Positions 24,336 to 63,174 of a stretch of DNA of 64,000 nt are shown here, in pieces. Source of the DNA: Mesomycoplasma ovipneumoniae (GTDB lineage Bacteria > Bacillota_I > Bacilli_A > Mycoplasmatales > Metamycoplasmataceae); NCBI GenBank assembly GCA_009756935.1, contig VZDP01000004.1:1-64000 (forward strand), in the 5' to 3' direction. The notes under the pieces are model-generated. The model made no database searches and was not told where the DNA came from. It saw only the letters and a program-made list of their open reading frames with translations. The translations under genes and the position numbers were made by a program. The first letter of the stretch is position 1. Each line of letters opens with the position of its first letter.

Positions 24336-24923
24336 CCCGAGTTTTCCAGTTTGATGAGATAATCTTAAAAAGTGTCCGGTTTTGGGCACTTTTTAACTTT
24401 TTTGGCAAACTCAGGAAAAATAACTATCAAGGCAAAAACACTAAATTTTAAATCTAACACTCATGAATGCAAAATCCACTTACTAATCGAGTAAAGCAAA
24501 CTAAAAAAGCAGTTTAAAACACTACCAAAAATCATAAAAAGTACAACTACTATTTAAACTCAATGTAAATAGAAAACTCGTTTTTATTTGCGTCGAGCCT
24601 AAAAAAACATATGAAAGAAATTTTTTTTAGACCAAGCATTTTTTTGCAAAAGATTAATTTTACAATAATCAAAATTAAGACTTTGAGTCAAAAAACACGG
24701 ATTTTAAACCAGGACAGAGAAAATTAACATATTAGACAAAAAACATAACTAAGTCCCCCTTAATTCAATATCAAAATTTATTAATTATTCTTAGTGAGTG
24801 TAATTATAGCAGAAATTTTTTTTAGACCAAGCATTTTTTTGCAAAAGATTAATTTTACAATAATCAAAATTAAGACTTTGAGTCAAAAAACACGGATTTT
24901 AAACCAGGACAGAGAAAATTAAC
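24336..24923 (-). repeat. Copy R2 of the TIR repeat, rearranged
   Basis: Starts with the terminal repeat CCCGAGTTT..CAGTTTGATG (24336-24356), then the bidirectional hairpin AAAAAGTGTCC/GGGCACTTTTT (24367-24395) and the CTCAATGTAAATA hairpin near 24558. The unit's promoter lies on the minus strand: TTGGTC at 24830-24825, 16 bp, TATAAT at 24808-24803. AAGGGGG then precedes a 4-codon ORF (24746-24732). A 113-bp block (24619-24731) is repeated at 24811-24923. The far terminal repeat is missing, where the IS3-type element begins. Confidence 0.85.
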
Positions 24924-24960
24924 ACTAAGGTGTTGGCTTTTTTGTCCGAGTTTAAGGAGA

Positions 24961-24990
24961 AAGCTAACACCCAAAGTGTTAGCTTTTTTA
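24961..24990 (+). terminator. Hairpin in front of the IS3-type transposase
   Basis: AAGCTAACAC, loop CCAAA, GTGTTAGCTT then T6: a good terminator that would shield the transposase from outside transcription. The right arm with its T-run is also a diverged direct repeat of 24925-24943 (GGTGTTGGCTTTTTT). Confidence 0.7.
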
Positions 24991-25022
24991 AATTTTCAAA
25001 TGCAACAAAACGGAGAATACTA

Positions 25023-26126
25023 ATGTCAAGACACTTTAAAAAAGACGAGTTTGATATGATTTATAAAATTTACAATGAATTTGGATTAAAAAAAACAATA
25101 AATTATATAAATGATATTTCGCCAGATACAAATTTTATAACCAGAGATCAATTAGTTCGAAGAATCAAAAAAATTATTCGGTATTATAATAATGGTATGC
25201 AAGACCAATTATTAGATAAAAAGGGTGCAAGAAGAAAGCCAGGGACTGGCAAACCTAAAAAACAAATTGAACCCGATTGAAACGAATTTACAAAAGAAGA
25301 ATTAATAGAAATAGCTAAGAGATATTACGAAACCAACAAAGATAAATCAAAATCAGGAAAACTTAGTGAAGCCAAAACACTAAATATTCCCTACAGCAAA
25401 TCTGCAAAAATTTTTAATGTGTGCAGACAAGCAGTGGCAAAATCTAAAACTAGAGTTATAAAAGTAAAAGAACACAAAAATGACGCAATAATTAAAAAAT
25501 CCTTTCTTGATAACAAAGGTAGATATGGTCGCCTAAGGTTGAGTGCTTATATTTCTATGAAATATAATATTAACATTCACCCTCGAACTCTTGGAAGACA
25601 TTTAAAAAGATTGAATTTAGTATGCAAAATTAGAAAAAAAAGAAGAAAGAGCGAAATTAAGAACACCAAATTCGCACTACCGGATATTGTTAAACGCGAC
25701 TACAATGATAAATTAAATAGAAATATTTTTGCTACTGATGTTACATATATAAAAGCTCCCAGAGATGTTAAGGAAAACCATGTATTTTTGTCTGTAATAA
25801 TTGAGCATAAAACTAAAAAAATCAGAGATTTTAAATTATCTGTAAACAATGATCTTGATTTAGTTATGGGTAATATAAAGACATTTAGGTCTATAGATAA
25901 AGATTTTGTTATTCATTCGGACCATGGATTTCAATACACTTCAAAAGTCTATATTGACAAAATAAATAAAATGGGAGGAACTGTTTCGTTGTCTCGCATA
26001 GGAGATATTATCGTTGTTATTCTTCACGAGTCAGATAAAAAAGAATTCCAATTTAAAGTTCCTTTACAAAACATTAATCAACTCCCAGTGCTAGTTGGTC
26101 AATCATTACCAAGCAAAAAACAATAA
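25023..26126 (+). CDS. IS3-family (IS150/IS1138-like) transposase, 3'-damaged
   Basis: 367 aa, one ORF combining OrfA and OrfB. N-terminal helix-turn-helix (HFKKDEFDMIYKIYNEFG), the HTH_21-like stretch GRYGRLRLSAYISMKYN, then the rve integrase core with Asp239 (ATDVTYI) and Asp300 (HSDHGFQYTS). After SLSRIG (codon at 26001) the sequence no longer looks like IS3. The expected NxxDNA..E block with the catalytic Glu is absent and 40 unrelated residues lead to TAA. It is therefore probably inactive. No right inverted repeat is found. Confidence 0.85.
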
Positions 26127-26160
26127 AATTGGTCTCTAAATTTTAGAATATTTTTGTATA

Positions 26161-26189
26161 AAAGCCGCGATTAACTTCGCGGTTTTTAT
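26161..26189 (+). terminator. Terminator after the transposase
   Basis: AAAGCCGCGA-loop-TCGCGG followed by TTTTTATTTT. Confidence 0.75.
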
Positions 26190-26299
26190 TTTGAATTAAA
26201 TTTATTTGACTAAAACATGCAAGTAACTTTTCAATGCTAAATTTATTAACCCCTTTTTGCAAAAATTTATAAACCCTTTTGTTGAAGTTAAACAAATGC

Positions 26300-26372
26300 T
26301 TGAGTTTGACAGTTTGATGGCAAAAATTCACTTTTTAGTGAATACAAATATGAAAAAAATACCGGTAAATAA
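26300..26372 (+). repeat. Isolated end fragment of the TIR repeat
   Basis: TTGAGTTTGA..GTTTGATGG, then the AATTCACTTTTTAGTGAAT hairpin and TACCGGTAAAT: the outer 70 bases of the repeat in plus orientation, opposite to R2, with no body. Confidence 0.7.
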
Positions 26373-26453
26373 ACTAGGGCAAAGACTAATTTCAATTTAA
26401 TTTTTTGTTGCAATTTTGATCAAAAATGCCTTAAATTTATAGAAAAAACATCA

Positions 26454-26482
26454 AACCCGCGAATTAAAAGCGGGCTTTTTTC
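26454..26482 (+). terminator. Terminator before the SGNH lipoprotein
   Basis: AACCCGC-GAATTAAAA-GCGGGC followed by TTTTTT. It isolates the downstream promoter from read-through. The stretch 26373-26453 shows no gene. Confidence 0.7.
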
Positions 26483-26510
26483 TACTAATTTACATTTTTT
26501 TGTTCTTTTG

Positions 26511-26533
26511 TTTTTTTTTTTTTTTTGTATAAT
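26511..26533 (+). promoter_or_regulatory. Poly-T tract abutting a TATAAT -10
   Basis: Sixteen consecutive T (26511-26526), one G, then TATAAT (26528-26533). The run fills the -10/-35 spacer. Slippage would change spacer length, a known route to on/off expression of mycoplasma surface genes. The ribosome site GAAAGGAAA lies before the ATG at 26570. Confidence 0.6.
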
Positions 26534-26569
26534 TGTTAAGTTATTCAACTAAAATCGAAAGGAAACAGT

Positions 26570-28414: not shown

Positions 28415-28450
28415 TCAGACTCTAAAACACTTTATTAAAAATTAATACTT

Positions 28451-28488
28451 AAAAACATGGCATTTTTTTAACGTCATGTTTTTTTATT
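28451..28488 (+). terminator. Terminator after the SGNH lipoprotein
   Basis: AAAACATGgC loop GaCATGTTTT followed by T-rich sequence, 37 nt past the stop codon. Confidence 0.65.
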
Positions 28489-28493
28489 TAAAA

Positions 28494-28974
28494 AATAACT
28501 ATCAAAGCAAAAACACTGAATTTTAAATCTGACCATCACGAAAGAAAAAATACAACTGCTATTTAAACTCAATGCAAATAGAAAACTCGTTTTTATTTAA
28601 ATTGAGCCTAAAAAAATATGTAAAGTTTTGAAAGAACAATAACCAAAAGCCCTAAATTTGAAGATTTCTAAACGGTAAATTTAAGGCATTCCATCATATT
28701 TAAAAATATAATGGATAATTTGCATTTTCTGATTTTTTATGGCAAAAACATAACTAAGCCCCCCTTAATTCTTATTTCAAAATTTATTAACTATTCTTGG
28801 TGAGTCTAATTATAACAGAAATTTTTTTTAGACCAAGCATTTTTTTTGCAAAAGGTTGATTTCGAAACTATAAAAATTAAGGTTTTACCCTCAAAAAACA
28901 CGGATTTACAGGTATTTTTTGCATATTTATATTCACTAAAAAGTGAATTTTTGCATCAAACTGTCAAATTCAGG
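28494..28974 (-). repeat. Copy R3 of the TIR repeat
   Basis: The right terminal repeat CATCAAACTG..CAAATTCAGG (28954-28974) is present, the left one absent. Minus-strand promoter: TTGGTC 28836-28831, 16-bp spacer, TATAAT 28814-28809; AAGGGGGG precedes ATG-TTT-TTG-CCA-TAA. The TTCACT/AGTGAA hairpin and the CTCAATGCAAATA hairpin are present. It lies between two convergent genes. Confidence 0.85.
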
Positions 28975-29001
28975 TAAAGATATTAACTAAAAATTTAAGT
29001 C

Positions 29002-29037
29002 AAAAAAAATCATCTTCTTAAAAATGGAGATGATTTT
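29002..29037 (-). terminator. Terminator of glyA
   Basis: Minus strand AATCATCT-loop-AGATGATT followed by T8, about 28 nt past the glyA stop. Confidence 0.8.
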
Positions 29038-29064
29038 CGCTAAACAAAAAATAATTTATTTTTT

Positions 29065-30321: not shown

Positions 30322-30400
30322 TTCTCAAAAAACATAGAAATTATACTATAAAAATAAGGAATATTCTAAAAACAGGCAGCATTTTGCAAAAAAATTTTTT

Positions 30401-36215: not shown

Positions 36216-36787
36216 CCCGAGTTTCCCAGTTTAATGAGCTAATCTTAAAAAGGTGTCTGGTTTTGGGAACTTTTTTAACTTTTTTGCTAAAAATTAATTA
36301 CCTATTTTAAAACACCGCAAAATCAAGCTATGGACAAAACAACAAAAACCATAAAAAATACAACTACTATTTAAACTCAATGCAAATAGAAAACTCGTTT
36401 TTATTTGCATTGAGCCTAAAAAACATATGAAGTTTTGAAAGAACAACAACCAAAAGCCCTAAATTTATAGATTTCTAAACGGTTAAATTTAAGGCATCCC
36501 ATTATATTTAAAAACATAATGGATAATTTGCACTTATTTTATTATGTCAAAAAACATAATTAATTCCTCCTTAATTCAATATCGTCAATTTATTAATTTA
36601 TTCTTAAGTGAGAATCATTATAACACAATTTTATTTTTGACCAAACATTTTTTTTTTTTTTTGCAAAGGCTTAATTTTAAAATAATAAAAATTAAGATTT
36701 TAACCTCAAAAATACCCGTAAATCCGGGTATTTTTTCATATTTGCATTCCTAAAAAGTGAATTTTACCATCAAACTGGAAACTCAGG
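36216..36787 (-). repeat. Copy R4 of the TIR repeat
   Basis: Complete: left terminal repeat CCCGAGTTTCCCAGTTTAATG (split 36216-36236), right CATCAAACTG..AAACTCAGG (36768-36787). Minus-strand TTGGTC 36644-36639, 16 bp, TATAAT 36622-36617, AAGGAGG, then ORF MFFDIIK. Perfect 13-bp stem CTCAATGCAAATA/TATTTGCATTGAG near 36376-36414. The poly-T upstream of the -35 is 15 long. Confidence 0.88.
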
Positions 36788-36792
36788 ATTTA

Positions 36793-37234
36793 CCCGAGTT
36801 TCCCAGCTTGATAAGGTAATTTTAAAAAGGTATCCGGTTTTAGGGACTTTTTTAAGTTTTTTGGTAAAAGTTAATTACAATTTTTTTACTGATTTATTAA
36901 CACATCATAGTAAAAATCATACCTATTTCAAATATTCGGATCACTAGGCACACCATCGCGATTTTTAAATATCATTTGCTGATCTAAAGTGTTAAATTTA
37001 ACCCTTTGTCTTAATTTTTGCAACATCGTTACTAAACCAACTTAGTTAATTTTTGTTTTTTCATAATTTATAATTATACCATAAAATTACTTAAAATGTA
37101 ATTAAATGATATTAATAAAAATTAAGGTTTCACGTTCAAAAAAGACTGATTTACGGGTGTTTTTTCATATTTTTATTCACTAAAAAGTGAATTTTTGTCT
37201 TAAAACTGGGAAACTCGGGAAACTGGAAACTCAG
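36793..37234 (-). repeat. Copy R4b: TIR element with a different body
   Basis: Left end CCCGAGTTTCCCAGCTTGAT (36793-36812) abuts R4; the right end is doubled (37201-37234). It keeps the terminator hairpin at its left end, but the body is replaced by the small-ORF module described below. R4 plus R4b together are flanked by the 18-bp direct repeat AAAAAGCAACTAATTTTT at 36198-36215 and 37244-37261. Confidence 0.75.
36886..37026 (-). CDS. Repeat-borne 46-residue protein, copy 1
   Basis: MLQKLRQRVKFNTLDQQM ... DPNIWNRYDFYYDVLINQ, TAA end. The copy at 62346-62486 has the same length with seven conservative or point changes and no frameshift, and its Trp codon is TGG where this one has TGA. That pattern suggests selection on the protein. 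Upstream lie a -10 (37078-37073) and a 10-codon ORF (37064-37032, MKKQKLTKLV). The ribosome site is poor. The family is not recognised. Confidence 0.45.
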
Positions 37235-37398: not shown

Positions 37399-39384
37399 TT
37401 AGAATTGCTCAAATTTTAGCAATTTAATTACCGGTTTACGATAACTTAGTCAAGAAATTATTAGGTAAATTACCGAAATAGATCCAAACATTATAAGTCA
37501 TATTATTATAAGTAAAGCTCCAACTTGGCTCAGTGAGGGTAGTAAAATATCTTGACCAATTATTGCAGTATAAATTTTTCCCATTGACGGAATGAAAACA
37601 ACTGAATTAATAAATAAAATAAAGAGCGAAATTATAATAATATTGAGCCAATGGTAAAAGAAAATTTGTCAGGTTTTAGCATTTAGTGCCTTAAGAATTC
37701 CAATTAATTTCATTTTTGAATCACTCAGATTTTTGGCATAAAAGACTGTCTGAATTAGTAAAATTATAATAAATAAAACTAAAATAGCACCAATAACTAT
37801 ATTTGTAAATGATTGTGTATTTAATATTGATTTTGTTATACCACCTAGAGATGATTGGGTTTCAAATTCTTTGTTGTTTTTAGCAAAGTTTTCAATATTA
37901 GTTGCTAAATCATCATCAATATTAAAATAAAGTTTCAATACTCAAGGGTCAATTTTTTCTGGCTTATTGTTGTCTTTTTCTGGCTTATTATTGTTAAGAT
38001 TTTCATTTGAGCCGTTGTTTTTTTGGACAGGTTTTGCTAGTTCAAAAAATTTATGATGTAAAAAGCTAAAATTTAGTCTGTCTAAAGTAGACAAACTACT
38101 TATACCAACTACTTTTAGATCTACGGCTGTGTTTCGAAAACTTGAGACACTAATTTTTTGATTGTTTGGCTGTTCTATATTAAATTTTGTTGCCAGTGAT
38201 TTTGAAATTATTACTTCATCTTTGTTTTGAATATTTCTGCCTACTAAATTTTTGTTGTCAAAAATAAATCTATTTTTAAAAAAATCACTTTCATCGATAT
38301 AGTCAACAGAAGAATCAAACTCTGTTTTATCGCCATAAGTGAAAGTAACCTTAGGAAAGCTAAAAATAGGAACAATTTTTACAATTTTTGGGTTATTTTC
38401 TTGAATTTTTGTGATTTCATTAGTAGAAAATGTGTTTATTTCTGCATTTGATTTTTTTGTTATTACAACCGAATCTAATTGATATTCAATCGTGTTTTGC
38501 AAATTAGTGCTGCTAATATTTAAATTTAAGACACCAAATAATAGTGTCCCAAAAAAACTTGTTAAAAAAAGCAATAAAAATAAAATACTTGAGGTAAGTT
38601 TTGATTTAAAATCTGTAATTGTTAATAGAAAACCTGTCTTAAATTCCTGTTTAATTTTCGAAAGTTTTGAATTTTTAGCTGTTTTTTGATAGTTTAAATC
38701 GCTGTTTTTGGCAGTATTTTTAGTAATTAAGGACTGATTTTGGCCATTTTTGTCAAAAATTTCCTCAGAAATTTTGTTTTTTTCAATATAAACAATTTTG
38801 TCGGCATATTTTTTTGCTAAATCAAGGTTATGACTAACTACTAAAATAGTTTTATTTTTGGCAATATTAGCTAAATTTTCAAATACAATTTTTGCATTTT
38901 CAATATCTAAATTTCTTGTTGGTTCATCAAGCAATATAAAACTACTATCACGTGAAAGTGAACGTAAAATTGCAATTCTTTGCCTTTCGCCGCCAGATAA
39001 ATTATTTACTTTTTGTTCAAGTTGTTCAGTTTTTATCGACATTAAATTTGCATTTTGATTTAATGCATTTTTGTCTAAAAGTTTATTTATTACATTATTT
39101 CCTATTAAAATATTATCATTAGATGTAATTTTTTCAATTAAATTAAAATCTTGAAAAACAACATCAACTAATGGTTTTTTAATTTCAGAACCATTTTCAT
39201 CAAAAAAAGAAATGTTTCCAGTATCTTTTTTTGTAAAACCGGCAATTAAATTAATAAGGGTTGTTTTGCCAATTCCTGATTCGCCAACTACAAAAGTTAC
39301 TTTGTTCGAAGGAATTTCAAGATTTAGTGAACTAAAAATAAATCTGTCATCAATTTTTTTTGTTAAATTTTGAATTTTTATCAT
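37399..39384 (-). CDS. Fused ABC ATPase-FtsX permease, paralogue 2
   Basis: 661 aa. ATPase (1-220): GESGIGKTTLIN (Walker A), NNLSGGERQR (signature), FILLDEPTRNLD (Walker B, with Arg where Gly is usual in PTGNLD). Then one TM helix (about 255-285), an extracytoplasmic domain, a low-complexity linker NNGSNENLNNNKPEKDNNKPEK, and three C-terminal TM helices of the MacB/FtsX type. It probably acts on lipoproteins or peptides at the membrane face; substrate unknown. It follows its longer paralogue, separated by a terminator-like hairpin. Confidence 0.85.
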
Positions 39385-39461: not shown

Positions 39462-41744
39462 TTATCTTAACAAAGTTGCCACATCTTTTCGATATGTTTT
39501 ATAAGAAATTAATAGGTAAATAAATGACATAGAAACAAAACTAATTAACCAAGTTAAAACAAAAATTACGGTAATTTGCGAATAATCTGGCTGAAATAAG
39601 TTTTGATTCAGAACTATTTTGTAAATTTCTGGGACAATCAAAGTAGATAAAATTATACCTACAAAAAATACAAAAACACTAATAATTATTAAATTTAATC
39701 AATGGTACATGAAAATTTCTAACGTTTTTCCGCCTAGCGATTTTAAAACTGCTATTGATTTTTTCTTAAAATTAGAAAGATTTACGGCATAAACGCTAAT
39801 AAAAATCAATAAAGTAATACCAAGAACTATAATTGAGGCAAAAATAATCGCAATCAAAGTAAATTGAGAGGCAAATAAAGAATGTCTTAGTTCATCAATC
39901 CCTCCAGAGGTGGAATAATAACGTTCGACACCAGATTTACTATATTTATCTAAAAAATCCTGAATATTATTATAAAGATTTTCATGATTAAAAAAGACTA
40001 AAAATTCACTAGGATGTACTTGGCTGAAAAAATTTTCGATTTCACTGTTAAAAATTACTATATTCTCTGGTTCTTCTGAAGTATTATTAGTAGTTTTATC
40101 GGCATCAAAAATACCAACAACTTTAAAAATATAATAGCTCCGAAAAGTAGTATTAATTTCTATTAGTTTTCCAATTTTATTAGTAATATTAGAGCTAACT
40201 GCAATTTCGTCGAATGATTGAGGTAAATTACCTTTAGTTAAATTTATTGAATTTGCCTGGCTTGAATTTTGATAAAAAGATTTCGTAATAGTCGGATCAA
40301 TAATTGTCGTATTGTCATCTGTTCCTGAAGTGCGAGAGTCAAGAGAATAATAATTATCTGGCAAAATATCGAATCTATTAAAATTTTTGGATCTTTCTTT
40401 ATACCCCTTTTCAAATGTTGTCTTTAATTTATTTGTATGGATTAAAGACAACAAAGGTTGATCAAAACTTTTTTCTTCAATTACTCCAACAATTTTTACT
40501 TCTTCAAAATGTTTAGAAAAAGAAATTTTTATTTTTTTTCCTATTGGGTTTGTGATTTGAAGTTGATTAATAATTTTCTCAGGTAAAATAACTTCGTCTT
40601 GATTAGATATAAAATTATTATTAAATTTTTGGCTTTTAATAATGTCAGCGAATCTATTTTTAAAAAAATCCGACTCATCAACGGGGAAAATTGGGCCTGT
40701 TGAAACTTTTTTATCATCATAACTGAATTCAAATGATTGTAAATGAGTATATATTGGTATTATTTTCTCTATTTTTGGGTTTTCTTTTTTAAGTTTCTCT
40801 AATTCATTAATATTTAAGGAAGAAAGCCCCTTTTCACTTACGTTTAATGTGTCTAAATTATATTGAACAACGTTGTCAAAATTAATATTTTTAGCGGAAA
40901 TATTTAAGTTAATAAATAAAACTACACCAAAAATCATTGCTAAAAATGAAACCAAAACAAGAATAAAAGTAGTAATTTTCGATCTAAAATCAGCAAAAGA
41001 CAAAAGTAAGGCGACTTTTGCTTTTTGGTAAAAAGACGGTTTTTTATATACTTTATTTTCAGAATTTGCTAAAAAATTATTCGTAGATATTTGAAGATTT
41101 TTTTGTGGTTTATCTTTATTTTCTATTGATTGAATATTTTCTTTTTCTACATAAATAATTTGATCAGCATATTTTTTTGCAAGTTCTAAATTATGACTTA
41201 CAACTAAAACAGTCTTATTTTGCGATATTTTAACTAACAAATCAAGCAATGCAATTGAGTTTTCTTTATCCAAGTTCCCTGTAGGCTCGTCAAGTAAAAT
41301 AAAGTCGGCATTTCTTGATGAACTTCTTAAAAATGCAGCTCTTTGCTTTTCACCGCCTGATAAATTCTTAGCTAATCGATTTAATTTTTGACTATTTATG
41401 TTAATTGCACTAGCTTCGTTTTCAATTTGGTTATTTTCAACATAACGATTTAGAATATGATTTGCAATTAAAATATTATTTTTAATTGAAAGTGATTCTA
41501 TCAAGTTGAAATCTTGAAAAACAACGTCCACCAAAGGATTTTCAATTTCATTACCATTTTTAAAAAATGAAATTTGGCCACTATCCTTTTTTGTAAAGCC
41601 GGCAATTAAGTTAATCAGGGTGGTTTTCCCAATTCCTGATTTTCCAACAATAAAGGTTATTTTATTTGATGGAATCTCAAGATTTATTGAATTAAAAATA
41701 GTTTTATTGTTAAATTTTTTTGATAAATTTTCAATTTTTATCAT
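39462..41744 (-). CDS. Fused ABC ATPase-FtsX permease, paralogue 1
   Basis: 760 aa, same architecture as the gene at 37399: GKSGIGKTTLIN, KNLSGGEKQR, FILLDEPTGNLDKEN, one TM after the ATPase, a large extracytoplasmic domain (about 290-600) and three C-terminal TM helices. N-terminal ATPases are about 70% similar by eye, while the external domains have diverged and this one is about 100 residues longer. That is the pattern of an exported-substrate or surface-exposed part under diversifying selection. The ATG is preceded by AAGAGG. Confidence 0.85.
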
Positions 41745-42467: not shown

Positions 42468-45400
42468 ATGTACAGAAAAAAAGCAAAAACCAACCCAATA
42501 TTTTTATTCGGGGTTGGTATTTTTTCACTTGTTGTTGCCTCTTGTTCAACCTCAAACTCAAATTCATTTCAAAATTACACCGATCCAAATAAAAGTCTTC
42601 AAAAAAATCAGGTAGATAATTTTTTTCTTCAGTATCCAAATTTTCCTGAAGATATTAAAAATAAAATAAAAGATTCCTTAAATATTTCCTCACAAAATTT
42701 CGCAAATTCAGAATATATGCCTAAACTTTCTCAATTTGTAGAACAATACTCATCAACATTAGATTTGTTTGGAAAATTCGAGTCTAATTTTAAATCTAAA
42801 ACAATCGATAAGTCTTTTAGCGTTAACGAGGATAAATACAATAATTTAAAAAGTGAAATTGAATCGTTTAATCAAAAAATTCTAAATTCATCTAATTTTG
42901 ATACTAAATTGGATGAGTATTTAGCCAAAATAAGTGAATTAAACGCAGAAATTACTAAAACTAATGAGACCCTTAGTCAGGAACTGTCAACTTTTGGTTG
43001 ATTTAATACGGTTTTAAAACACGCAAACCTTGTTAATCTTAAAGCCTTAAGTGCGCAAATTAATGACAAAATTACCACTTTATATAAAAATGATAATAAA
43101 GAAGAAATTGAAAATTTCACCTCAAATTTAATGATTTTGGAAAATATTATCACTCAAATTAAATCAATAAAAAATGAATATTCAACTAAGAAAAATGAAG
43201 CTTTCAATAATTTAATTACAAATTTTAATTCAAATATAAATTCTGATAACTTAATTAACAATGTGACTGATTCAATTCAAAATCTTAAAAGTATCCAAAC
43301 TAATTTAGAAAAAATTGTTAATGAGTCAGCACAAAAAAATGAAAAACTACAAGAATTAAAGAAATCTGTTATTTCAGATGTTGAGAATGCCGCTAATTTA
43401 TCCCAAAGTGTTCAAAGTAATTTTAAAGAAAAAATAAATGACTCAATTACTGAATCACAAATTAGTCAAATTAAGGAATTTATTTCGGATTTAGAAAATG
43501 TTGCATCACTTCTGTCTTCATTGAAAACAGAAAAAATAGAACTAGAAAATAAGCCTAATTATTTAAATTCTGAAAATAAAACAGAATTAGATAATCTAAT
43601 GAGTTCCTTAAATTTTCTAGATGAACAAAATAAGCTTGTATTAAATGATGAGATTTCCAATAATACAAAATATTTTTTATCTAATGCTTTAACAGTCTAT
43701 GAAAATGTAAAATCAGAAATAGCACGTCTTAATGGTGATGTTAAGCTAAAAGAAGCTAAAAAAACTTTGGAAAATCAATTATTACCTAGCAAATTTAGTT
43801 CAAATTTTATTTCTAATATTAAAAAACTAGCAGATTCAAAAAAATTAGTTTCTGATATTAAAGATATAAGTTCTAGCATTTTAAAATTAGCAGATTCGCT
43901 TGACTTATATAATGTTGAAGTGAAAAATTCTCAATCATTATTGAATAACTCAAGTACATCTGCAACAAATAAGCAACAACTTGAAGAAAAAAATAACAAA
44001 ATTAAAGAAAAATTAGACGAAAATCTCCGACTTAATCAAATTGATAGTGAAAATTTGCCCGGATTTGCTGATGATTTTGCTAATTTAGTCAGTTCATTTT
44101 CACAGACAATTTTAAATTCAAAAGCGCAAAATGAGCAAATTGTGCAAGAAAAACCACCGGTAAAAGTTGCACAAAATTTATCAGATTTTAAACAAGAGGC
44201 CCAAAAAGCCCTAAAAATTAGTCTTGATGACCAAGGACTTGACCGTCATAGTATAAAAAAATATCTTACTTCTGCTTCTTTTAACCTTCAAAATGCAAAT
44301 CTTTGGTTAAAACAACCACAAAATGATGAAATAAATTTCAAATTATTAGACTTATCATTAGATAGTAACAACAAAAATATTTTAGTCCTTAAATATGAGG
44401 CGACTTCAACAAAAAACCCTTCACATTCAACGATTTTATCCACCCAACTTTTAATTTCTAATGATGATGTTGACTTAAACAAGATAATCTCTTCATTAAA
44501 CATAGATTTTCTTGATGACTATTTTGATATTTACTATAATTCGTTCCTTGATTTTGAAAAAGAAGACTTCCCTAAGCAAGACGTAAAAAAATTTATTTTA
44601 GAAAATTTTTCTCAATCAAAACAAACAATCGGAAATTTTTTCCATGTTGCATTACCAGAGCGACCTGAATTAACCTTTACCAGTGATAATAAAATATCTT
44701 TAAAATTAGAGATTAAATTTAATAACCAAGTTATTAAAACAGTCATTGTTAAGTCCAAGAACCCAGTTAATTTTAAACAAAAAGAAAACTTGCCAGTAAA
44801 AATTGGATATACTCAAAACTTCAAAAACTCCAGCTTTTATAATCAAACTTACCTTAATGATTCTGAATATGCTGATTATGATTATACAAAGACAAATGAC
44901 CTATCAGCTTATTATTGGAGTTTCCAAGAGCCTGCAGGTGCTGGCGGGGTTGGAAGCTATTGATTTTATAAATATTTATTAAAACCAGCTTTAGAATCGC
45001 TGCAACAAACAGGGGAAATTGCTGCAAATAAAAAATTTAAAACTCTTAAAGATCAGCCAAAAGTTGTAAAAGTTTCAGAATTTGGTTCAGAAAACCCAGC
45101 AAATCCAGATGAATTAAGCAAGTCCGACCTTGATAAAATTTTTGATAAAATTTTAAAAGATAAACAATTTTTTAACTACGAAATTCCTAGAAATGCGACA
45201 ATTTCACTTTCAACTTTTGATGTTGATAATGAAAAAAGAAGAGTTTTAACCTCAAGTACAACTCAAAGTATTTGGCTTAAATTATTAATAAAAAATGGCC
45301 AACACACTAGAGAAGAAATTCTACAATTTGCACCTAAAGATTTCTTAAAACCAATTTTATCACCACGTGATAAAGCTGATTTATCATTAATTGAAGACAT

Positions 45401-48400
45401 TTTAAGTGATCCTACTGGTAAAAAATTATTTAAAAACACAAAAATTAACGATATAGATCATACCCACGGTCAAATTTCACTAGCTGGAAAAACGAGTTCA
45501 GAAATAATTAATTCACTTAACAACCTTTATACATTTGCTAAAATTGGAAAATTTGAAATTTTTGCAAAAGATGTTATTTCTACAAACATTTTAAAAGGTG
45601 AGGCAAAAATTTTCTTTTGGTACAAATTTAACGGGTTGGAATTTCCTCTAATTGTTGAAGGAACTAAACGTACTGATGTGTTCAAAACTGAAAAAGCCAT
45701 TAGTTTTTCAAATTGACTGCCAGCTACTTATAGCGATATTAAGCCTAAAAATGGGTCTAGTTTCACCAGTGAAGATTTTGCACCTATTCCAGAAGAAACA
45801 GGTCAAGTGGATAGAAGTAATGGCAAAGCAATTTTAAAACCTAATCAAATTTCCACTGATGATAAATCAATAATTGATCAAATTAATAGTCGCCACTTTG
45901 ATTATCGTAGAGTGACCGGTGAATTTTATAAAAAAGAGCAAATAGACATAAAATATAGACTAATTGACCCAGCTGATATTGTTGAACAAAAAGCTGAATC
46001 AAAGCTAAATTACTTACTTCAAATAAAAGCTAGAAATGAAACTACTAAAAATAGTGATTTAAATAATTTTAAAAATGAAGAAGTTAAACTTGAGGGTGAA
46101 GACAAAAAAAGTGGAAAAAATAGTGAAAAATTACCAAAAATTGTCGAGAAGCAAATATTTTTTAATACTGATCCTGAAGTCACACTTGACACTTCGAAAA
46201 TTTTAAACAATTATTTTGTCTATTATTATGATGCTAAAACCACTAATATACCAGGTGAAATGACTTTTAAACTTGGTTTTATTAACAAAAAAAACACAAA
46301 TATCCGCTATAGTTCTGACAAAGTCATAAAATTACAAAACCTAGAAAACGATTATAAAAATAAACTTTATCCTGAAGTAATTCTAAATAAAATCAAATAT
46401 TCTGATCTTGTTCTAAAAAATAATAGTTCACTTGCAAGAAACGCGTTAAATAACAACAATTTTAAAGATCTTTTTGACATCAAAGAACAAGCACTTCAGT
46501 ATAATAATTTCAAAATTTCAAAAGAAAATTTACAATTTCTTGAGACAAAAAAATACAATAATAAATTATATTTCCGTCTAAAATATGTTAATGGGCAATA
46601 TACTGTTGAAGGATCAACTTGATATTTTTTAACAAATATAAATAACCAAAATATTCAGGCCAATATAGATTTAGATACACAAAACCCATTAGTTACTTTA
46701 TTTGATTCTGGAAATGAAGTAACTAGAAGTCGTGAAATTGAACCTTATTATAAAGATTTATATTGAAATTACGATAATTCTACAAAGACAGCTAAATGAA
46801 CATTAAAAGAAAAATATTTTTCTCAAACATTTTTAAAAAATAATCCTAAAAACCGGAAAATAAATCTGCAATTATTTGGAAATGCTTTAGTTCAAAATAC
46901 CCGAAGACTTACCCGAATTAGCGGCGGAATGGACTTGCTTGAAAACAAACCAACTAAAGGTGGTTATGATTTTGTTTTTGACTTTGAAAAATTAGCAAAG
47001 GGCGAAATAATAGCAATTACTGAAGAAACCAAAAATGTATTTTTTGAAAATTCAGGGAAAAAATTTGAGAATTTTAAATTTACTTTAAGTGCTCAATATA
47101 TCAAAGATCAAGGGATTGAATTTAAATTATGACTAAATAATTCAAATCTTGGTTTAATAGTTGATAATGTTCTTAACCATGTTGAAAAAGGCGCCGACTT
47201 CTATAATAGTTCAAAATTTGACACTTTTGATCCAAAAAAAGCCTTTATTTTACATAAAGCCGGAGCAAGAGTTCATATTGAATACACAAATTCGCTTGAA
47301 AATGAAGATTTTGGTTCTAAAACAAATCAGTTTGATTATAAAAATATTGACTATACTAATGAAGAACAACCAATTTCATTCTTTACCAATTCAGATGCTT
47401 ACAATTTAGAAAAATATAATCCAAATCAAAATGTTCCTTATAAATTACATGAAGGGTATTTACAAGATTTAGAATTTTTACATAAATCTTGAGATACTAA
47501 AAAATTCCCACTAGCAAAAAATTTATTAGCTAGAACCTTTGGATTTAGTTTTGGAAGTGCAACTATGCTTGCAAAAGTAAATAATGACCCAGATGATGGT
47601 AAATTTTACATAATCACAAATAATCACGTCGAAGGTGGCGCAAGTTTTGATTTAAATACTCTTTTTGGTAAAGATTTAACTCATTCCTTATCAAATACTC
47701 GTTACATGGCTATTGCAAGTAAATATTATTCTAATTCAATTGATGGCGGTTATAGCTATTGAGGTGGACCAAACGCCGTCAAAAATGTTCCTACTTGGAT
47801 AGTTTGAACTGGTATTAAACAACCGGATGTAGATGGAAAAAATCCAAAAAATGTTGACATAACTGTTTTAATTGTTGATATTAAACCTTTAATTAAAGCG
47901 GCTTATGAAAGCGGTGAGTTCCAAAAAGCAGCCTGATTATTAAATTGATATAAATTACCTAACTTAAAATTAAATTCAAATGGTCAAACAGATTTAACAT
48001 TTTTTGGTCAAAATGTTAAACATTTTGGAATGAATGGATTTCCTTATGCAAAACAAAGTGGATATATAATTAATAGGGCTAATTCAGATCAACAAAATGT
48101 TACTATTTTGAATCAAACAGGTTATACTCCATCATATTTTAACGCTGGTAATTCCGGAACTGGAGTATTAGGGCCAAATGATGAGTATATTTCAACAATT
48201 AATGGAGGTTCACCACTTACATTTTTACAAAGTTGGAATTATTCAACGGCAAATTATAATTATTTTGGAATAAATTGACAAAATGAAAAACCACTTGAAC
48301 TAAAAAGTAAATATAGTTTATCATCAATGATAATGAGACTAAATGCTCAAAATCCGCGTGAATACAGTCTTCCTTGGTTTTTCAAAGATTTTGAAAAATA

Positions 48401-48401
48401 A
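42468..48401 (+). CDS. Very large lipoprotein with C-terminal DUF31 (MIP-like) serine protease
   Basis: 1977 aa. Signal peptide and lipobox VVASC (Cys26). Residues 40-600 are Ser/Asn/Lys-rich, mostly helical and coiled-coil-like. A middle part (about 600-1680) is mixed alpha/beta with no recognised domain. The last 300 residues form a DUF31/PF01732 trypsin-like domain. Probable triad: His1720 (ITNNHVEGG), Asp1797 (VDITVLIVD) and Ser1896 (NAGNSGTGV). The family includes the mycoplasma immunoglobulin protease MIP, but here the protease is fused to a giant anchored stalk and no MIB-like partner is seen. Many TGA(Trp) codons, no frameshift found. Confidence 0.85.
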
Positions 48402-48505
48402 AATAATCTTAAAGTCACAAAAATTAGCTTATTAATTTAGTCTATTTATTTAAACTTTTCTATTTTTGCTGATTTTATTGACATTAAAACTAAAAGGTTC
48501 AAAAT
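48349..48505 (+). repeat. Left copy of the 157-bp duplication flanking R5
   Basis: Covers the last 17 codons and 3' region of the DUF31 gene. The same stretch, about 85% identical, recurs at 49185-49341 on the other side of repeat R5. Confidence 0.8.
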
Positions 48506-49184
48506 CCCGAGTTTCCCAGTTTGATGACATAATCCTAAAAAAGTGTCCTGGTTTATTATTTGGGCACTTTTTTAACTTTTTTGACAAACTCGGAAAAATA
48601 ACTATCAAAGCAAAAACACTAAATTTTAAATCTAGCCATCACGAAAGAAAAATCTACTACTAAGCAAACTAAAAAAGCTAAAATTTTAACTTAAAAGGCA
48701 AAATTATGAATTTTTAAACTACTTTTTTAGTTTAAAACACTAACAAAAATCATAAAAAATATAACTACTATTTAAACTCAATGCAAATAGAAAACTCGTT
48801 TTATTTGCAGCGAGCCTAAAAAACATATGAAGTTTTGAAAGAACAATAACCAAAAGCCTTAAATTTATAGATTTCTAAACGGTTAAATTTAAGGCATACC
48901 ATCATATTTGAAAATACAATGGAAAAGCCGCATTTTCAAATTTTTTTATGACAAAAACATTCTTAATTCCCCCTTAATTCTAATCTCAAAATTTATTAAT
49001 TATTCTTAGTGAGGTTCATTATAACATAATTTTATTTTAGACCAAACATTTTTTTTTTTGCAAAAGGCCGATTTTAAAACAATAAAAATTAAGATTTTAG
49101 CCTCAAAAATCGCGGATTTACGGGCATTTTTTGTATTTATATTGACTAAAAAGTAAATTTTGCCATCAAACTGTCAAACTCAGG
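48506..49184 (-). repeat. Copy R5 of the TIR repeat (679 bp, both ends intact)
   Basis: Left end CCCGAGTTTCCC..TTTGATG (48506-48526), right end CATCAAACTG..CAAACTCAGG (49164-49184). AAAAT lies at both outer borders. Hairpin GTGTCC/GGGCAC with T-runs (48537-48574). Minus-strand TTGGTC 49045-49040, 16 bp, TATAAT 49023-49018, AAGGGGG and ORF MFLS. Transcription would run antisense towards the DUF31 3' end. Confidence 0.88.
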
Positions 49185-49341
49185 AAAATCCGCGCGAATA
49201 CAATCTCGCTTGGTTTTTTCAAAAATTTTAAAAAGTAAAATAATTTTAGAGCCCAAAAATTAGTTTATTAATTTAGTCTATTTATTTTAAATTTTCTATT
49301 TTTGCCGATTTTATTGACATTAAAATTAAAAAGTTAATAAT
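49185..49341 (+). repeat. Right copy of the 157-bp duplication, decayed DUF31 3' end
   Basis: Begins AAAATCCGCGCGAATAC and would read PREYNLAWFFQKF before a stop, against PREYSLPWFFKDF in the gene. It is non-functional and more mutated than the left copy. Confidence 0.8.
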
Positions 49342-49391
49342 CCATTTACTCTAAAAAGTCGCAAAAATTTGTAAAAAAATACTAAAAAAAG

Positions 49392-57347: not shown

Positions 57348-57477
57348 ATTTTTTTTGTGTCAAAAAAAAAAAAAAAATTATTTTGAAAAAAAATTTTCTT
57401 AAAAGACTTTTCTTTTTGGTAAAATTATATTCCATTTAATTTTTTAATTATTTAAAGAGCTATTTAGAGGTGGAAAA

Positions 57478-58524: not shown

Positions 58525-58525
58525 A

Positions 58526-58981: not shown

Positions 58982-61144
58982 ATGAAAACACACGACAAAA
59001 ATCACGCTTTTAGTTCTAGCAGCTCTGAAAGTTATATTAGCCTAAATGCAAAGGCCAAATTATTTTCAAAAAATCCAGATGCATATAAATTTGATATTTT
59101 AGCCGGGCAAAAATATATTAGCGAACATATTGAGCCTCGATTTAAAGTATTTAATTCGTTCAAAGACCGAATTAATTTTTTGCTTAGCCAAAATTATTAT
59201 GACCCTGCAGTCATAAATCAGTACTCATTTGAACAACTTGAGGAATTAAATCAAAAAGCTTGAAGTTATAATCATTTTTTCCCTTCATTTATGGGTGCTT
59301 TTAAATTTTATTCTTCATATGCCCTAAAATCTGATGATAATTTAACATATTTAGAACATTTTCCTGACCGGGCTTTGTTAAATAGTTTATTTTTGGCTAA
59401 CGGAAATTTTGAAGATGCTAGGCAAATTCTTGAGCAAATAATGCTAGGCAGATTTCAACCAGCTACCCCAACTTTTTTAAATGCAGGAAAACTAAGAAGA
59501 GGAGAGTTTGTTTCTTGCTATTTAATTAGAGTTGAAGACAATATGGAATCAATTTCGCGGGCAATTACAACTTCTTTGCAACTTTCAAAGCGTGGTGGCG
59601 GAGTTAGTGTTTTGCTAACAAATTTACGTGAACTAGGGGCACCAATTAAAAACATTGAAAATCAAGCAACAGGCGTAATTCCTGTCATGAAAATACTTGA
59701 AGACTCTTTTTCGTATGCAAACCAACTTGGACAACGTCAAGGAGCTGGTGCTGTTTATTTAAATGTTCACCATCCTGATATTTTGTCTTTCCTTGATACA
59801 AAAAGGGAAAATGCTGATGAAAAAATAAGAATAAAATCGCTCTCTCTGGGCGTTATAATCCCAAATATAACACTAACACTGGCCAAAAACAACGAACAAA
59901 TGGCACTTTTTTCTGTTTATGATACCGAAAAGTTTTACAAAAAACCTTTTAGTGACATTTCAATCACCCAAGAATACTACAAAATGCTAGATAATCCCAA
60001 AATTAAAAAAACCTTCATTTCAGCAAGAAAATTATTTCAAACAATTGCTGAACTACAATTTGAAAGCGGTTATCCTTATATTTTATTTGAAGACACTGTT
60101 AATGATGCAAATGCTCATCCTGATCGGGTTGTAATGTCAAATTTATGTTCAGAAATCACTCAACCTTCAACTCCAAGTTCTTATTTTCCTGATCTAAGTT
60201 TTAAAGAAATTGGCCAAGATATCTGCTGTAATTTAGGTTCGCTAAATATTGACAAAGCCATGGAATCAGGTAAAGATTTTCAAAAAATGGTTCACTATTC
60301 AATTGTCGGACTTGATAGTGTCTCAAGAAATTCTGATCTTTCAGTTGCCCCTTCAATTCAAAAAGGGAATAATTTAAACCACGCAATTGGACTTGGAGCT
60401 ATGAATTTACACGGTTTTTTGGCCAAAAACCAAATAATGTATGACTCAGAAGAAGCTCTTGACTTTACAAATATTTTCTTTTATTGTCTAGCATTTTCTG
60501 CTTTTAAGTCTTCTTTAGAATTGGCAAAAAAATTCGGTCCTTTTGCTGGTTTTGAAAAAACCACATTTGCCAGTGGCAAATATTTTGAAAAATATACAAA
60601 AGTTGATAGCTCAACTTTTGTACCAAAAACCGCTAGAATTCAGCAACTTTTTGAAGACTATCAAGTTGCAATTCCGTCCCGTCAAGACTGGATTGAACTG
60701 GTAGAGCAAATTAAAATTCACGGAATTGCCAATTCACATTTAATGGCCATTGCTCCAACTGGGTCAATTTCCTATCTTAATTCTTGCACCCCATCACTCC
60801 AGCCGGTTGTTGCCCCTGTTGAAGTTAGAAAAGAAGGAAAATTAGGAAGAATTTATGTTCCTTCATATCAATTAGGTCCAAAAACATATGACTTTTATCA
60901 AAAAGGAGCATACGAACTTGGACCAATTCCAATTATTAACATCGTTGCCGAAGCCCAAAAACACGTGGATCAGTCAATTTCAATGACATTATTTTTAACT
61001 GACAAAGCAACAACTAGAGATTTAAATAAAGCATATATTCATGCCTTTAAAAAAGGTTGCAAGTCAATTTATTATGTAAGAATTCGCCAAGATGTCCTTG
61101 AAGATTCAGAAAACTATGAATTTTGCGAGTCTTGTGCCGTTTAA
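58982..61144 (+). CDS. nrdE: Ribonucleotide reductase alpha subunit NrdE
   Basis: 720 aa, class Ib R1. PATPTFLNAGKLRRGEFVSCYLI carries one active-site Cys. SLQLSKRGGGVSV and MSNLCSEI hold the radical Cys and Glu. APTGSISYLNSCTPSLQP forms the phosphate site, and the C-terminal redox pair is FCESCAV. No ATP-cone, as expected. It makes dNDPs using the radical from NrdF and electrons from a NrdH/thioredoxin-type donor not present here. Confidence 0.95.
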
Positions 61145-61179
61145 TTTTTCAAAATAAAATATTTTGAAAAATTTATTAT

Positions 61180-61689
61180 CTAATATTGATTTTTAATTCT
61201 TTCAAGATTTTTATTGTATTTTTCCAGATAAGCTTGAGTTACTTGATCAATATTTCAGTTCAAAATTTCAATAAAACCAAGGAAATATTCAAACAAATTA
61301 ACAAGAGTTTCTTTTTCCTTTTTATGCAAAAAATCAGCGGCTAAAATAAAGACTTTTTTAAATTGTTCGTTAATATCTTTGTTTTGAACAAATTTTGTTT
61401 CAAAAACTTGTTGGCTTTGAAAATGAATTCCGGCTGAAACAAGAAAATGAATTGCATCAACAAATTCTTCGATAGTTTTATCAAAATTAGACTTTTTGTT
61501 AATTTTTCAATATTTAAAGCTTTCAATTTCATTTGCAAATTCAGCAATTTCGACTATGGCAGCAATTATTACCTTATCTTGCCATTGGTGATCAACCTTT
61601 GTGATTAAATCATTACCATAACTATATTCAGCAAAAAGTTTATCTAAAATTTTTTGTTTTTCAAAAATTAGTTTTAAATCAACAATCAT
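61180..61689 (-). CDS. dut: Dimeric (all-alpha) dUTPase
   Basis: 169 aa. Metal-binding helices show IVEIAEFANEIESFKYWK and EEFVDAIHFLVSAGI, the ExxE and ExxD pattern of MazG-like dimeric dUTPases. It hydrolyses dUTP to dUMP, linking to the nrd operon with which it converges. Two TGA(Trp) codons. No clear terminator in the 35-nt gap to nrdE. Confidence 0.85.
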
Positions 61690-61780
61690 ATTACTTCACA
61701 CAAAAAAATATATAATTAATAAATGTATAATTATATATTTTTTTGTTAATTTTTCAAAGAAAAAAATTATTTTGCTTTTT

Positions 61781-62344
61781 CCAGAGTTTCCTGGTTTGAT
61801 GGCAGAAATTCACTTTTTAGTGGATAAAAATATACAAAAATAACGGTAAATCCGTGTTTTTTTAGCTAAAGCCTTAATTTTTATTATTTTAAAATCAGCC
61901 TTTTGTAAAAAAAAAAAAAAAATGCTTGGTCTAGAAAAAAATTCTGTTATAATTAGAGTCACTTGAGAATAATTAATAAATTTGATATTGAATTAAGGGG
62001 AATTAGTTATGTTTTTGTCATAAAAAAATCAGAAAATGCGAATTATCCATTATGTTTTTAAATATAATGGAATGCCTTAAATTTACCCGTTTAGAAATCT
62101 TTAAATTTAGGGCTTTTGGTTATTGTTCTTTCAAAACTTCATATATTTTTTTAGGCTCAATTTAAGTAAAAACGAGTTTTCTATTTACATTGAGTTTAAA
62201 TAGTAGTTGTTTTTTTCTTTCGTGAGTGTTAGATTTAAAATTTAGTGTTTTTGCTTTGATAGTTATTTTTCCTTTGTTTTCCAAAAAGTTAAAAAAGTGC
62301 CCAAAAAACAGACACTTCCTAAATCGAAGATAAAAATGCAACGT
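61781..62344 (+). repeat. Copy R6 of the TIR repeat
   Basis: Begins with CCAGAGTTTCC..GTTTGATG (61781-61801) and the TTCACTTTTTAGTGGA hairpin. A16 (61907-61922), TTGGTC 61926-61931, 16 bp, TATAAT 61948-61953, AAGGGG, ORF MFLS at 62009-62023. Hairpins CCATTAT/ATAATGG, CCTTAAATTT/AAATTTAGGG and a CTCAATTTAAG/CATTGAG stem follow; the end hairpin AAGTGCCC/GACACTT is decayed. Bases 61809-62346 equal 62637-63174. Confidence 0.88.
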
Positions 62345-62345
62345 A

Positions 62346-62486
62346 TTAGTGATTTATTAAGATATCAAAGTAGAAATCATATCTATTCCAAATGTTTGGA
62401 TCGCTAGGGACATCATCGTGATTTTTAAGTATCATTTGCTGATCTAAAGTGTTAAATTCAACCCTTTGTCTTAATTTTTGCAACAT
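62346..62486 (-). CDS. Repeat-borne 46-residue protein, copy 2
   Basis: MLQKLRQRVEFNTLDQQM ... DPNIWNRYDFYFDILINH. Same length and frame as 36886-37026, Trp coded TGG here. A -10 (62538-62533) and ORF MKKQKLTRLV (62524-62492) lie upstream as in copy 1. It fills the spacer between R6 and R7. Function unknown. Confidence 0.45.
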   Translation of the reverse strand: MLQKLRQRVEFNTLDQQMILKNHDDVPSDPNIWNRYDFYFDILINH

Positions 62487-62637
62487 CGTTACTAAACCAA
62501 CCTAGTTAATTTTTGTTTTTTCATAATGTATAATTATACCATAAAATTACTTAAAATGCTATCAAATGCTACCAATAAAAATTAAGGTTTTACATTCAAA
62601 AAACACCGATTTTACGGGTCTTTTTTCATATTTATAT

Positions 62638-63174
62638 TCACTTTTTAGTGGATAAAAATATACAAAAATAACGGTAAATCCGTGTTTTTTTAGCTAAAGC
62701 CTTAATTTTTATTATTTTAAAATCAGCCTTTTGTAAAAAAAAAAAAAAAATGCTTGGTCTAGAAAAAAATTCTGTTATAATTAGAGTCACTTGAGAATAA
62801 TTAATAAATTTGATATTGAATTAAGGGGAATTAGTTATGTTTTTGTCATAAAAAAATCAGAAAATGCGAATTATCCATTATGTTTTTAAATATAATGGAA
62901 TGCCTTAAATTTACCCGTTTAGAAATCTTTAAATTTAGGGCTTTTGGTTATTGTTCTTTCAAAACTTCATATATTTTTTTAGGCTCAATTTAAGTAAAAA
63001 CGAGTTTTCTATTTACATTGAGTTTAAATAGTAGTTGTTTTTTTCTTTCGTGAGTGTTAGATTTAAAATTTAGTGTTTTTGCTTTGATAGTTATTTTTCC
63101 TTTGTTTTCCAAAAAGTTAAAAAAGTGCCCAAAAAACAGACACTTCCTAAATCGAAGATAAAAATGCAACGTAT
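62638..63174 (+). repeat. Copy R7 of the TIR repeat
   Basis: Aligned to R6 at a constant offset of 828 bases with no difference noticed over about 538 bases, so the duplication is recent. Promoter TTGGTC 62754-62759, TATAAT 62776-62781, ORF 62837-62851. The left terminal repeat is missing; the end continues into the IS30-type element, which it could transcribe. Confidence 0.88.

What the first reader, a model, noticed from the sequence alone, without database searches (positions are those of the whole stretch)
24336..63174. Dispersed TIR-bounded transcription unit: candidate mobile small-RNA or micro-ORF family
Copies R1-R7 share CCxGAGTTT..CAGTTTGATG at one end and its inverse at the other. 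Five independent copies plus the R6/R7 duplicate keep TTGGTC, exactly 16 bp, TATAAT, about 60 nt, AAGGGGG or AAGGAGG, then a 4-7 codon ORF (MFLS, MFLP, MFFV, MFFDIIK). They also keep a stem built on CTCAATGCAAATA and a terminator-type hairpin near the distal end. Exact spacer conservation with a drifting ORF sequence suggests the promoter and structured RNA are selected, or that copies spread recently. The element encodes no transposase.
Basis: partly seen in the sequence, partly recalled or inferred. Interest (0 to 1): 0.78.

Follow-up and report, generated by a model that had tools for sequence, protein, structure and literature searches.

The report
Mobile small-RNA elements in a mycoplasma
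This sheep-lung mycoplasma carries many copies of a small jumping DNA element that has no jumping enzyme of its own but seems to encode a conserved folded RNA with a tiny start-stop reading frame, an unusual cargo whose job is still unknown.

Summary
The repeat is real. The window is from the Mesomycoplasma ovipneumoniae complex (code 4). Element ends match those of an IS1634-family insertion sequence (104-120 bp left; 76-95 bp right in R3 and R4; 77-87% identity); the interior does not. A hairpin pattern counts 60-79 copies per genome in 7 of 15 held genus genomes. Of 80 two-ended copies, 28 have adjoining direct repeats of 17-145 nt, and 6 of 10 tested sites are empty in some sister genome: a non-autonomous, MITE-like element, presumably moved by IS1634 transposase. 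The interior shows RNA-level constraint: three covarying hairpins; changes to G-U outnumber changes to A-C 86 to 28 (about 1:1 expected); a 22-nt unpaired stretch changes four times less than the leader. The micro-ORF keeps a stop within 9 codons in 109 of 116 copies although its T-run changed about 18 times (66 expected by shuffling). Against: copies at one site diverge nearly as much as their flanks; one of two folded copies is no more stable than shuffles. Transcription could not be tested. Likely mechanism (inferred): a ribosome-docked structured RNA serving the element. Corrections: only R3 and R4 have both ends; R1 lost H1-H2.

The parts
24336..24925 (-). R1: rearranged copy. Distal terminal repeat 24336-24356, distal hairpin 24365-24394, H3 24550-24603, SD and ATG 24739-24766, micro-ORF MFFV 24732-24746, -10 24803-24811, -35 24825-24834. 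No proximal terminal repeat, H1, H2 or linker; exact 114-nt duplication 24616-24729 / 24811-24924.
28490..28974 (-). R2: proximal terminal repeat 28953-28974, -35 28831-28840, -10 28809-28817, SD and ATG 28744-28771, micro-ORF MFLP 28737-28751, H1 28691-28715, H2 28649-28687, linker 28618-28642, H3 28559-28612. Distal end missing.
36216..36787 (-). R3: complete copy. Proximal terminal repeat 36766-36787, -35 36639-36648, -10 36617-36625, SD and ATG 36550-36577, micro-ORF MFFDIIK 36534-36557, H1 36499-36523, H2 36456-36495, linker 36425-36449, H3 36367-36420, distal hairpin 36245-36275, distal terminal repeat 36216-36236.
   Evidence: IS-end match
48506..49184 (-). R4: complete copy. Proximal terminal repeat 49162-49184, -35 49040-49049, -10 49018-49026, SD and ATG 48953-48980, micro-ORF MFLS 48946-48960, H1 48899-48923, H2 48856-48895, linker 48825-48849, H3 48768-48820, distal terminal repeat 48506-48526.
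   Evidence: the same insertion is found end to end in five sister genomes
48349..48507 (.). left copy of the long target duplication of R4 (159 nt, 82% identical to the right copy at 49185-49343)
   Evidence: family D13
49185..49343 (.). right copy of the target duplication of R4
   Evidence: family D13
61781..62323 (+). R6: proximal terminal repeat 61781-61803, -35 61922-61931, -10 61945-61953, SD and ATG 61990-62016, micro-ORF MFLS 62009-62023, H1 62046-62070, H2 62074-62113, linker 62120-62144, H3 62150-62203, distal hairpin 62292-62323. Distal terminal repeat missing.
62637..63151 (+). R7: tandem duplicate of R6 (offset 828 nt) without terminal repeats. -35 62750-62759, -10 62773-62781, SD and ATG 62818-62844, micro-ORF MFLS 62837-62851, H1 62874-62898, H2 62902-62941, linker 62948-62972, H3 62978-63031, distal hairpin 63120-63151.
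36793..37219 (-). related non-RNA copy: IS1634-type IS with its middle deleted (start and end of the transposase gene joined), same ends as R3, lying next to it
62346..62625 (-). second fragment of the same IS deletion type (88% identical to 36886-37165), between R6 and R7

Best explanation
The repeat is a non-autonomous transposable element (MITE-like, median about 580 bp) made of the two ends of a resident IS1634-family IS around a foreign interior. SHOWN by comparison: shared ends, target duplications, empty sites, high copy number in seven genomes. SHOWN statistically: the interior is constrained as an RNA on one strand (three hairpins, a conserved linker) and by a 5' Shine-Dalgarno, ATG and early stop. 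INFERRED: the IS1634 transposase moves it in trans; an extended -10 promoter transcribes it into an RNA of about 300-400 nt that ends at H3 or at the distal hairpin; a ribosome docks at the strong SD, translates 4-5 codons and stops before H1, so that it protects the 5' end (as STAB-SD leaders do in Bacillus) without unwinding H1-H3; the hairpin-linker part then acts for the element or its IS family, by a step that is unknown.
For: Ends: R3, R4 and R6 match 104-120 bp of the left end of four ISs at 77.5-85.5%; R3 and R4 match 76-95 bp of the right end at 77-87%; R6 matches only 24-35 bp there in three ISs and none in the fourth; best interior match E 0.061. IS1634 family matches in all 7 high-copy genomes and in 10 of 15 genus genomes. 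Direct repeats touching both ends (within 30 nt) in 28 of 80 two-ended copies, 17-145 nt (several are the same site in different genomes). Joined-flank query: matches that run across the junction, hence empty sites, at 6 of 10 chosen sites, at least 11 genome-site cases. Copy number 60-79 per genome, control 0; a linker pattern gives 66-88, control 0-2. RNA: 121 copies, 40 pairs, 96.1% of cells paired; 8 pairs with two-sided changes against 3.0 (shuffled) and 1-7 (slid); covariation score 0.108 against 0.090 and at most 0.039. On the tree WC->GU 86, WC->AC 28, expected 141:134 from unpaired sites, p 1.6e-7. Changes per site: linker 1.7, H3 3' arm 2.1, ATG+T5 2.6, leader 7.3, promoter 8.3, ORF tail 9.2. 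Micro-ORF: stop within 9 codons in 112 of 120 copies, against 14 and 33 if one or two T are added; 109 of 116 against mean 65.7, maximum 81 in 2000 shuffles of T-run length; about 18 changes of T5/T6+ but 6 of short/long on the tree. The copy in another species (L038) keeps 35 of 40 pairs, three of them by changes on both sides, and MFFS with seven T.
Against: No expression data; promoter, transcript and translation are all inferred; across 22 copies with target duplications the H2-H3 divergence from consensus (4.6%) is not below half the duplication divergence (3.8%), so that clock shows no constraint after insertion; over 97 pairs at 30 candidate orthologous sites H1-H3 diverge 7-8%, only a little less than the flanks (9.6%). 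At the R4 site the leader is the least variable part (3.1%) and H1-H3 (8-9%) exceed the neighbouring coding sequence (5.5-6.0%). R6 folds no better than shuffles (z -1.2, 11 of 100), R3 better (z -3.1, 1 of 100). A-C breaks are commoner on terminal (24) than on internal branches (4), which fits partial decay after insertion. Gene conversion between copies cannot be excluded. No complementarity beyond shuffles to the transposase mRNA start.
Confidence: 0.55

Rival explanations
1. Plain MITE: IS1634 ends around junk, conserved only because copies spread recently from one source.
For: Clear mobility. Low divergence after insertion gives little time for decay, and copies at one site diverge nearly like their flanks.
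Against: Recent spread predicts even variability and no strand preference. Found: a 5-fold range of rates within one unit, G-U far above A-C, and compensated T-run frameshifts.
Confidence: 0.12
2. Hairpins kept at the DNA level (cruciforms or single-strand folds used in transposition or replication), not as RNA.
For: Long near-perfect palindromes; the reverse strand also scores weakly with the RNA model (L038, 28.7 bits).
Against: DNA hairpins are strand-symmetric, but G-U outnumbers A-C 86 to 28, and two adjacent G-U pairs in H3 are kept in 120 and 119 of 121 copies. It does not explain the SD and the ORF stop.
Confidence: 0.08
3. Host-adopted trans-acting small RNA (targets in the host), amplified by the IS ends.
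For: Constraint also on terminal branches; a single well-paired copy in another species (L038); an almost invariant unpaired linker suited to pairing.
Against: 60-79 redundant copies should relax selection on each. A search of one genome (G009) for the linker complement gave 89 matches with up to 1 mismatch; nearly all lie in element copies, and the few others are about as many as the control's 4. Insertions are polymorphic.
Confidence: 0.2
4. Portable promoter/terminator cassette that regulates neighbouring genes in cis.
For: Promoter-like motif kept; 64 of 67 scorable copies lie behind at least one gene, 31 of them between convergent genes, against 4 of 34 gaps in the window.
Against: Between tandem genes the unit points against the genes in 24 cases and with them in 9; IS-derived hairpins at both ends should stop read-through; RNA structure and ORF stop stay unexplained.
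Confidence: 0.08

Closest known systems
QMITE1 / QMITE2 of Coxiella burnetii (PMC5896051, passages read)
   Same: MITE families of about 50 copies, QMITE1 300-400 bp with sigma-70 promoters, giving rise to small RNAs.
   Different: Short direct repeats (2-3 and 7-11 nt). The passages describe sRNAs that arise where copies inserted; I saw no covarying internal RNA gene and no constrained micro-ORF there.
IS1634-family insertion sequences (PMC2266710, passages read)
   Same: Ends, and long variable target duplications (the paper gives 8-514 bp for IS1549 and IS1634).
   Different: No transposase; the interior is replaced by an unrelated RNA-type unit.
ISPpu9 small RNAs Asr9/Ssr9 (PMC8450116, abstract and outline)
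   Same: Small RNAs tied to an IS that set transposase expression.
   Different: They adjoin and are complementary to the tnp mRNA; here no complementarity beyond shuffles was found.
STAB-SD / 5' stabilisers of Bacillus-type mRNAs (PMC3997798, passages; its reference list also names a mini-ORF RBS that protects an mRNA)
   Same: A strong SD near the 5' end, with ribosome binding more important than translation.
   Different: There a coding mRNA is protected; here the protected body would be a noncoding RNA, and stability was not measured.

Membership tests
MITE (non-autonomous IS derivative) | short, no transposase gene, terminal inverted repeats | tested here: met
   median 579.5 bp in the 80 of 121 copies with both ends found; core crosses an ORF of 100 aa or more in 1 of 71 copies with long flanks (114 aa)
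MITE (non-autonomous IS derivative) | ends match a resident autonomous IS | tested here: met
   R3, R4, R6 against four ISs; IS1634 matches in all 7 high-copy genomes, though in G015 only as two part matches
MITE (non-autonomous IS derivative) | target duplication and empty sites | tested here: met
   28 of 80; 6 of 10 sites
MITE (non-autonomous IS derivative) | mobilised in trans by the IS transposase | not testable with these tools
   inferred from shared ends and duplication style
IS1634 family (autonomous member) | IS1634-type DDE transposase | tested here: not met
   no interior similarity to the IS; so it is a derivative, not a member IS
small-RNA gene | conserved covarying RNA structure on one strand | tested here: met
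   but R6 alone does not fold better than shuffles
small-RNA gene | a transcript exists | not testable with these tools
   no expression data for this species could be searched
known Rfam family | match at the gathering score | tested here: not met
   only tRNAs in the whole window; for R6 with E up to 10, eight sub-threshold matches, best E 0.025
STAB-SD type stabiliser | strong SD near the 5' end that stabilises RNA | tested here: inconclusive
   SD-type sequence kept and predicted to pair with a recalled anti-SD tail at -10.2 and -11.1 kcal/mol; stability not testable
antisense regulator of its transposase (RNA-OUT/Asr9 type) | complementarity to the tnp mRNA start | tested here: not met
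   five segments against three ISs; best rank 14 of 200 shuffles

The most novel reading that the evidence does not exclude
A transposable element whose cargo is a selected, ribosome-docked structured RNA: the micro-ORF is a start-stop landing pad rather than a peptide gene, and the RNA raises the success of the copy that makes it (cis or family-wide), so that one IS family drives a parasitic RNA gene to dozens of copies in a minimal genome.
Probability: 0.3. Interest if true: 0.8.

Novelty: new variant of a known kind. Interest (0 to 1): 0.62.

Why it matters
Bacterial MITEs are usually treated as IS leftovers, and claims of MITE-borne small RNAs rest mostly on where copies happened to insert. 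Here the RNA module itself shows selection, by three tests: covariation, a G-U over A-C preference, and kept micro-ORF frames. At roughly 60-79 copies of about 580 bp it would make up about 4% of a 1.1-Mb genome (my arithmetic). If the RNA is made and docks a ribosome, it is a natural case of a noncoding RNA that uses a start-stop ORF for stability, and a case of a mobile element that spreads an RNA gene. It is directly testable with one RNA-seq and one ribosome-profiling experiment.

Tried and rejected
Tried without result or against the reading. Rfam: no family. Phage and plasmid collections, distant mode, and one exact pattern in viral contigs: no match. Antisense to the transposase mRNA: no signal. 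Pseudoknot between the H2 loop and the linker: -4.6 kcal/mol, matched or beaten by 45 of 300 shuffles; rejected. Linker complement elsewhere in G009: five exact matches lie away from the H3 hits; one (129614) is the R2 site, the other four I did not examine. Possible extra copies in G012, G003, G005 and G011 from the linker pattern: eight stretches fetched gave no convincing homologue; chance matches. Target-duplication clock and orthologue rates: no or weak support for constraint after insertion, told above. Leader-peptide sensing of Phe or Leu: considered; not favoured, since no gene follows the unit and codon 4 varies freely.

Rows dropped before counts: 181 hits -> 147 full -> 132 unique -> 129 trimmed -> 121 after removing odd lengths and near-duplicates. 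R1 (no H1-H2) and R7 (identical to R6) are not among the 121. The micro-ORF counts use 120 of 129 or 116 of 121. Of the five without ATG plus T-run, three read ATGCTTT with an early in-frame stop and two have lost the ATG (read from the alignment). Many copies are the same site in sister genomes, so counts are not independent events.
Full report
WHERE IT IS. The window reads well in code 4. Its own assembly is not held; the nearest held genome, G001, shares 42% of sampled 31-letter words. G005 has the length published for M. bovoculi (760,240; listing, 86). G012 has the length that I recall for M. hyopneumoniae J, and G011 that of M. flocculare; these two names rest on recall only.

THE OBSERVATION. 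Six promoter-SD-ORF-H3 units are present (R1, R2, R3, R4, R6, R7), each with a 16-bp spacer. Only R3 and R4 have both terminal repeats. R1 is rearranged and lacks H1, H2 and the linker. A seventh copy with the same ends, 36793-37219, is a deletion form of the IS itself.

MOBILITY. A 31-nt H3 pattern (up to 3 mismatches) counts G001 73, G002 78, G008 76, G009 79, G010 75, G014 68 and G015 60, with 0 in the other 8 genus genomes and 0 for the control everywhere. A 17-nt linker pattern gives 66-88 in the same seven, control 0-2, and 0-5 in the other eight. An RNA model finds 9 of 119 family genomes: the seven (29 each, the cap), G012 (1, E 1.2e-18) and G126 (1, E 0.02, doubtful) (stricter filters). 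G003 keeps a scrambled remnant.

ENDS. Left ends match 104-120 bp of four ISs; right ends match 76-95 bp in R3 and R4; R6 keeps only 24-35 bp there (three ISs; none against the fourth); the interior does not match. The IS is IS1634 family (NF033559; 281.7 bits in G001), with matches in 10 of 15 genus genomes. Of 121 copies, 80 had both ends found; 43 of 80 have a direct repeat above the best of 60 shuffles, and in 28 it adjoins both ends. R4 has a 159-nt duplication, 82% identical. PMC2266710 (passages) reports 8-514 bp duplications for IS1549 and IS1634, which fits. Of ten copies chosen among those with duplications, six have at least one sister genome where the joined flank matches across the junction (sites L032, L024, L007, L014, L034, L036; at least 11 cases). 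The R4 region matches end to end in five genomes and in pieces in two, so some insertions are old.

RNA-LEVEL CONSTRAINT. On 121 copies and a structure of three helices (40 pairs), 96.1% of cells pair; every measure exceeds all 500 shuffles and all slid versions. Shuffles do not remove relatedness, so I rely more on three points. First, on a tree of the copies, WC pairs become G-U 86 times and A-C 28 times, while unpaired sites predict 141:134 (p 1.6e-7); the excess holds on terminal (58:24) and internal (28:4) branches. A DNA hairpin or an RNA of the other strand would not give this. Second, changes per site run from 1.7 (linker) and 2.1 (H3 3' arm) through 5.2 (H3 5' arm) and 5.5 (H2 3' arm) to 7.3-9.2 (leader, promoter, ORF tail). 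Third, the copy in G012 (L038) keeps 35 of 40 pairs, three through changes on both sides.

MICRO-ORF. In 120 of 129 copies with ATG plus a T-run, 112 stop within 9 codons and 99 within 5; adding one T leaves 14 and 3, two T 33 and 10. Copies with five T read GNCATAA and copies with six T read GTCTAA or GCATAA: the stop follows the frame. Shuffling T-run lengths among copies gives 65.7 on average, 81 at most, against 109 of 116. The tree has about 18 changes between five and six or more T and 6 between short and long ORF; 7 of 116 are long, and only one clade (of two) is all long. Third codons are Phe or Leu, fourth codons vary: the stop, not the peptide, seems to be kept. The long form (17 codons) would run a ribosome into H1 (inference).

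RESULTS AGAINST. The duplication clock, the site-by-site comparison (flanks 9.6%, H1-H3 7-8%, leader 16%, ORF tail 20%) and the R4 site (leader 3.1%, H1-H3 8-9%, neighbouring genes 5.5-6.0%) give little sign that single copies are better kept than their surroundings after insertion. Leader and tail that diverge more than the flanks suggest exchange between copies (inference). R6 folds no better than shuffles, R3 does. The sigma-70 scan finds no promoter in R6.

CONTEXT. Of 71 copies with long flanks, 67 could be scored: 31 between convergent genes, 24 tandem and opposed, 9 tandem and aligned, 3 between divergent genes; in the window, 4 of 34 gaps between ORFs are convergent. Orthologous copies are counted more than once.

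MECHANISM. Inferred: extended -10 transcription, ribosome docking at the SD, stop before H1, and a stable hairpin RNA. PMC3997798 (passages) describes strong SDs that stabilise Bacillus-type RNAs even without a start codon. What the hairpin-linker part does is unknown; I favour service to the element or its IS family, because dozens of redundant copies argue against a single host task.

LITERATURE. Searches (top rows seen) listed no paper that I recognised as describing this element. Passages of PMC6199787 and PMC5179023 (M. hyopneumoniae sRNAs and repeats) do not mention it under my search terms. PMC4198240 (passages) reports 78 putative ncRNAs in M. hyopneumoniae; its tables were not available to me. 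PMC5896051 and PMC10969869 (passages) hold the nearest precedent.

Noticed in passing
upstream of the -35 in copies; e.g. window 49050-49060 and its orthologues: The A-run before ATGYTTGG varies from 0 to 21 (median 16) among 121 copies, and from 7 to 17 among eight copies at the R4 site: a possible slippage-tuned promoter.
   Followed up: partly
window 48768-48820 and other H3 copies: The 3' arm of H3 is far more conserved (2.1 changes per site) than its 5' arm (5.2), so the 3' arm may have a second role. Unexplained.
   Followed up: no
TSDs of L030, L094, L035 and of the G012 IS (L175): Several duplicated targets contain terminator-like hairpins with T-runs, and copies are enriched between convergent genes: possible target preference for terminators.
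   Followed up: partly
window 24930-26126: ORF with weak HTH_21 and rve (integrase core) matches, IS3-like, directly beside the rearranged copy R1.
   Followed up: no
window 6193-7731 and 10206-11753: Two gene-sized stretches repeated about 4 kb apart at 86-90% identity.
   Followed up: no
window 38770-39204 and 41133-41567: Repeats at 76% in two neighbouring minus-strand ORFs, the first with an ABC transporter domain.
   Followed up: no
window 42468-48401: ORF of 1977 aa without any Pfam match at E 0.001.
   Followed up: no
window 4263-5108: Cluster of nine tRNA genes on the minus strand.
   Followed up: no
L172 (G002), L061 (G001): Intact IS1634-type ISs lie inside or directly beside copies of the RNA element, so element and IS often share sites.
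   Followed up: partly
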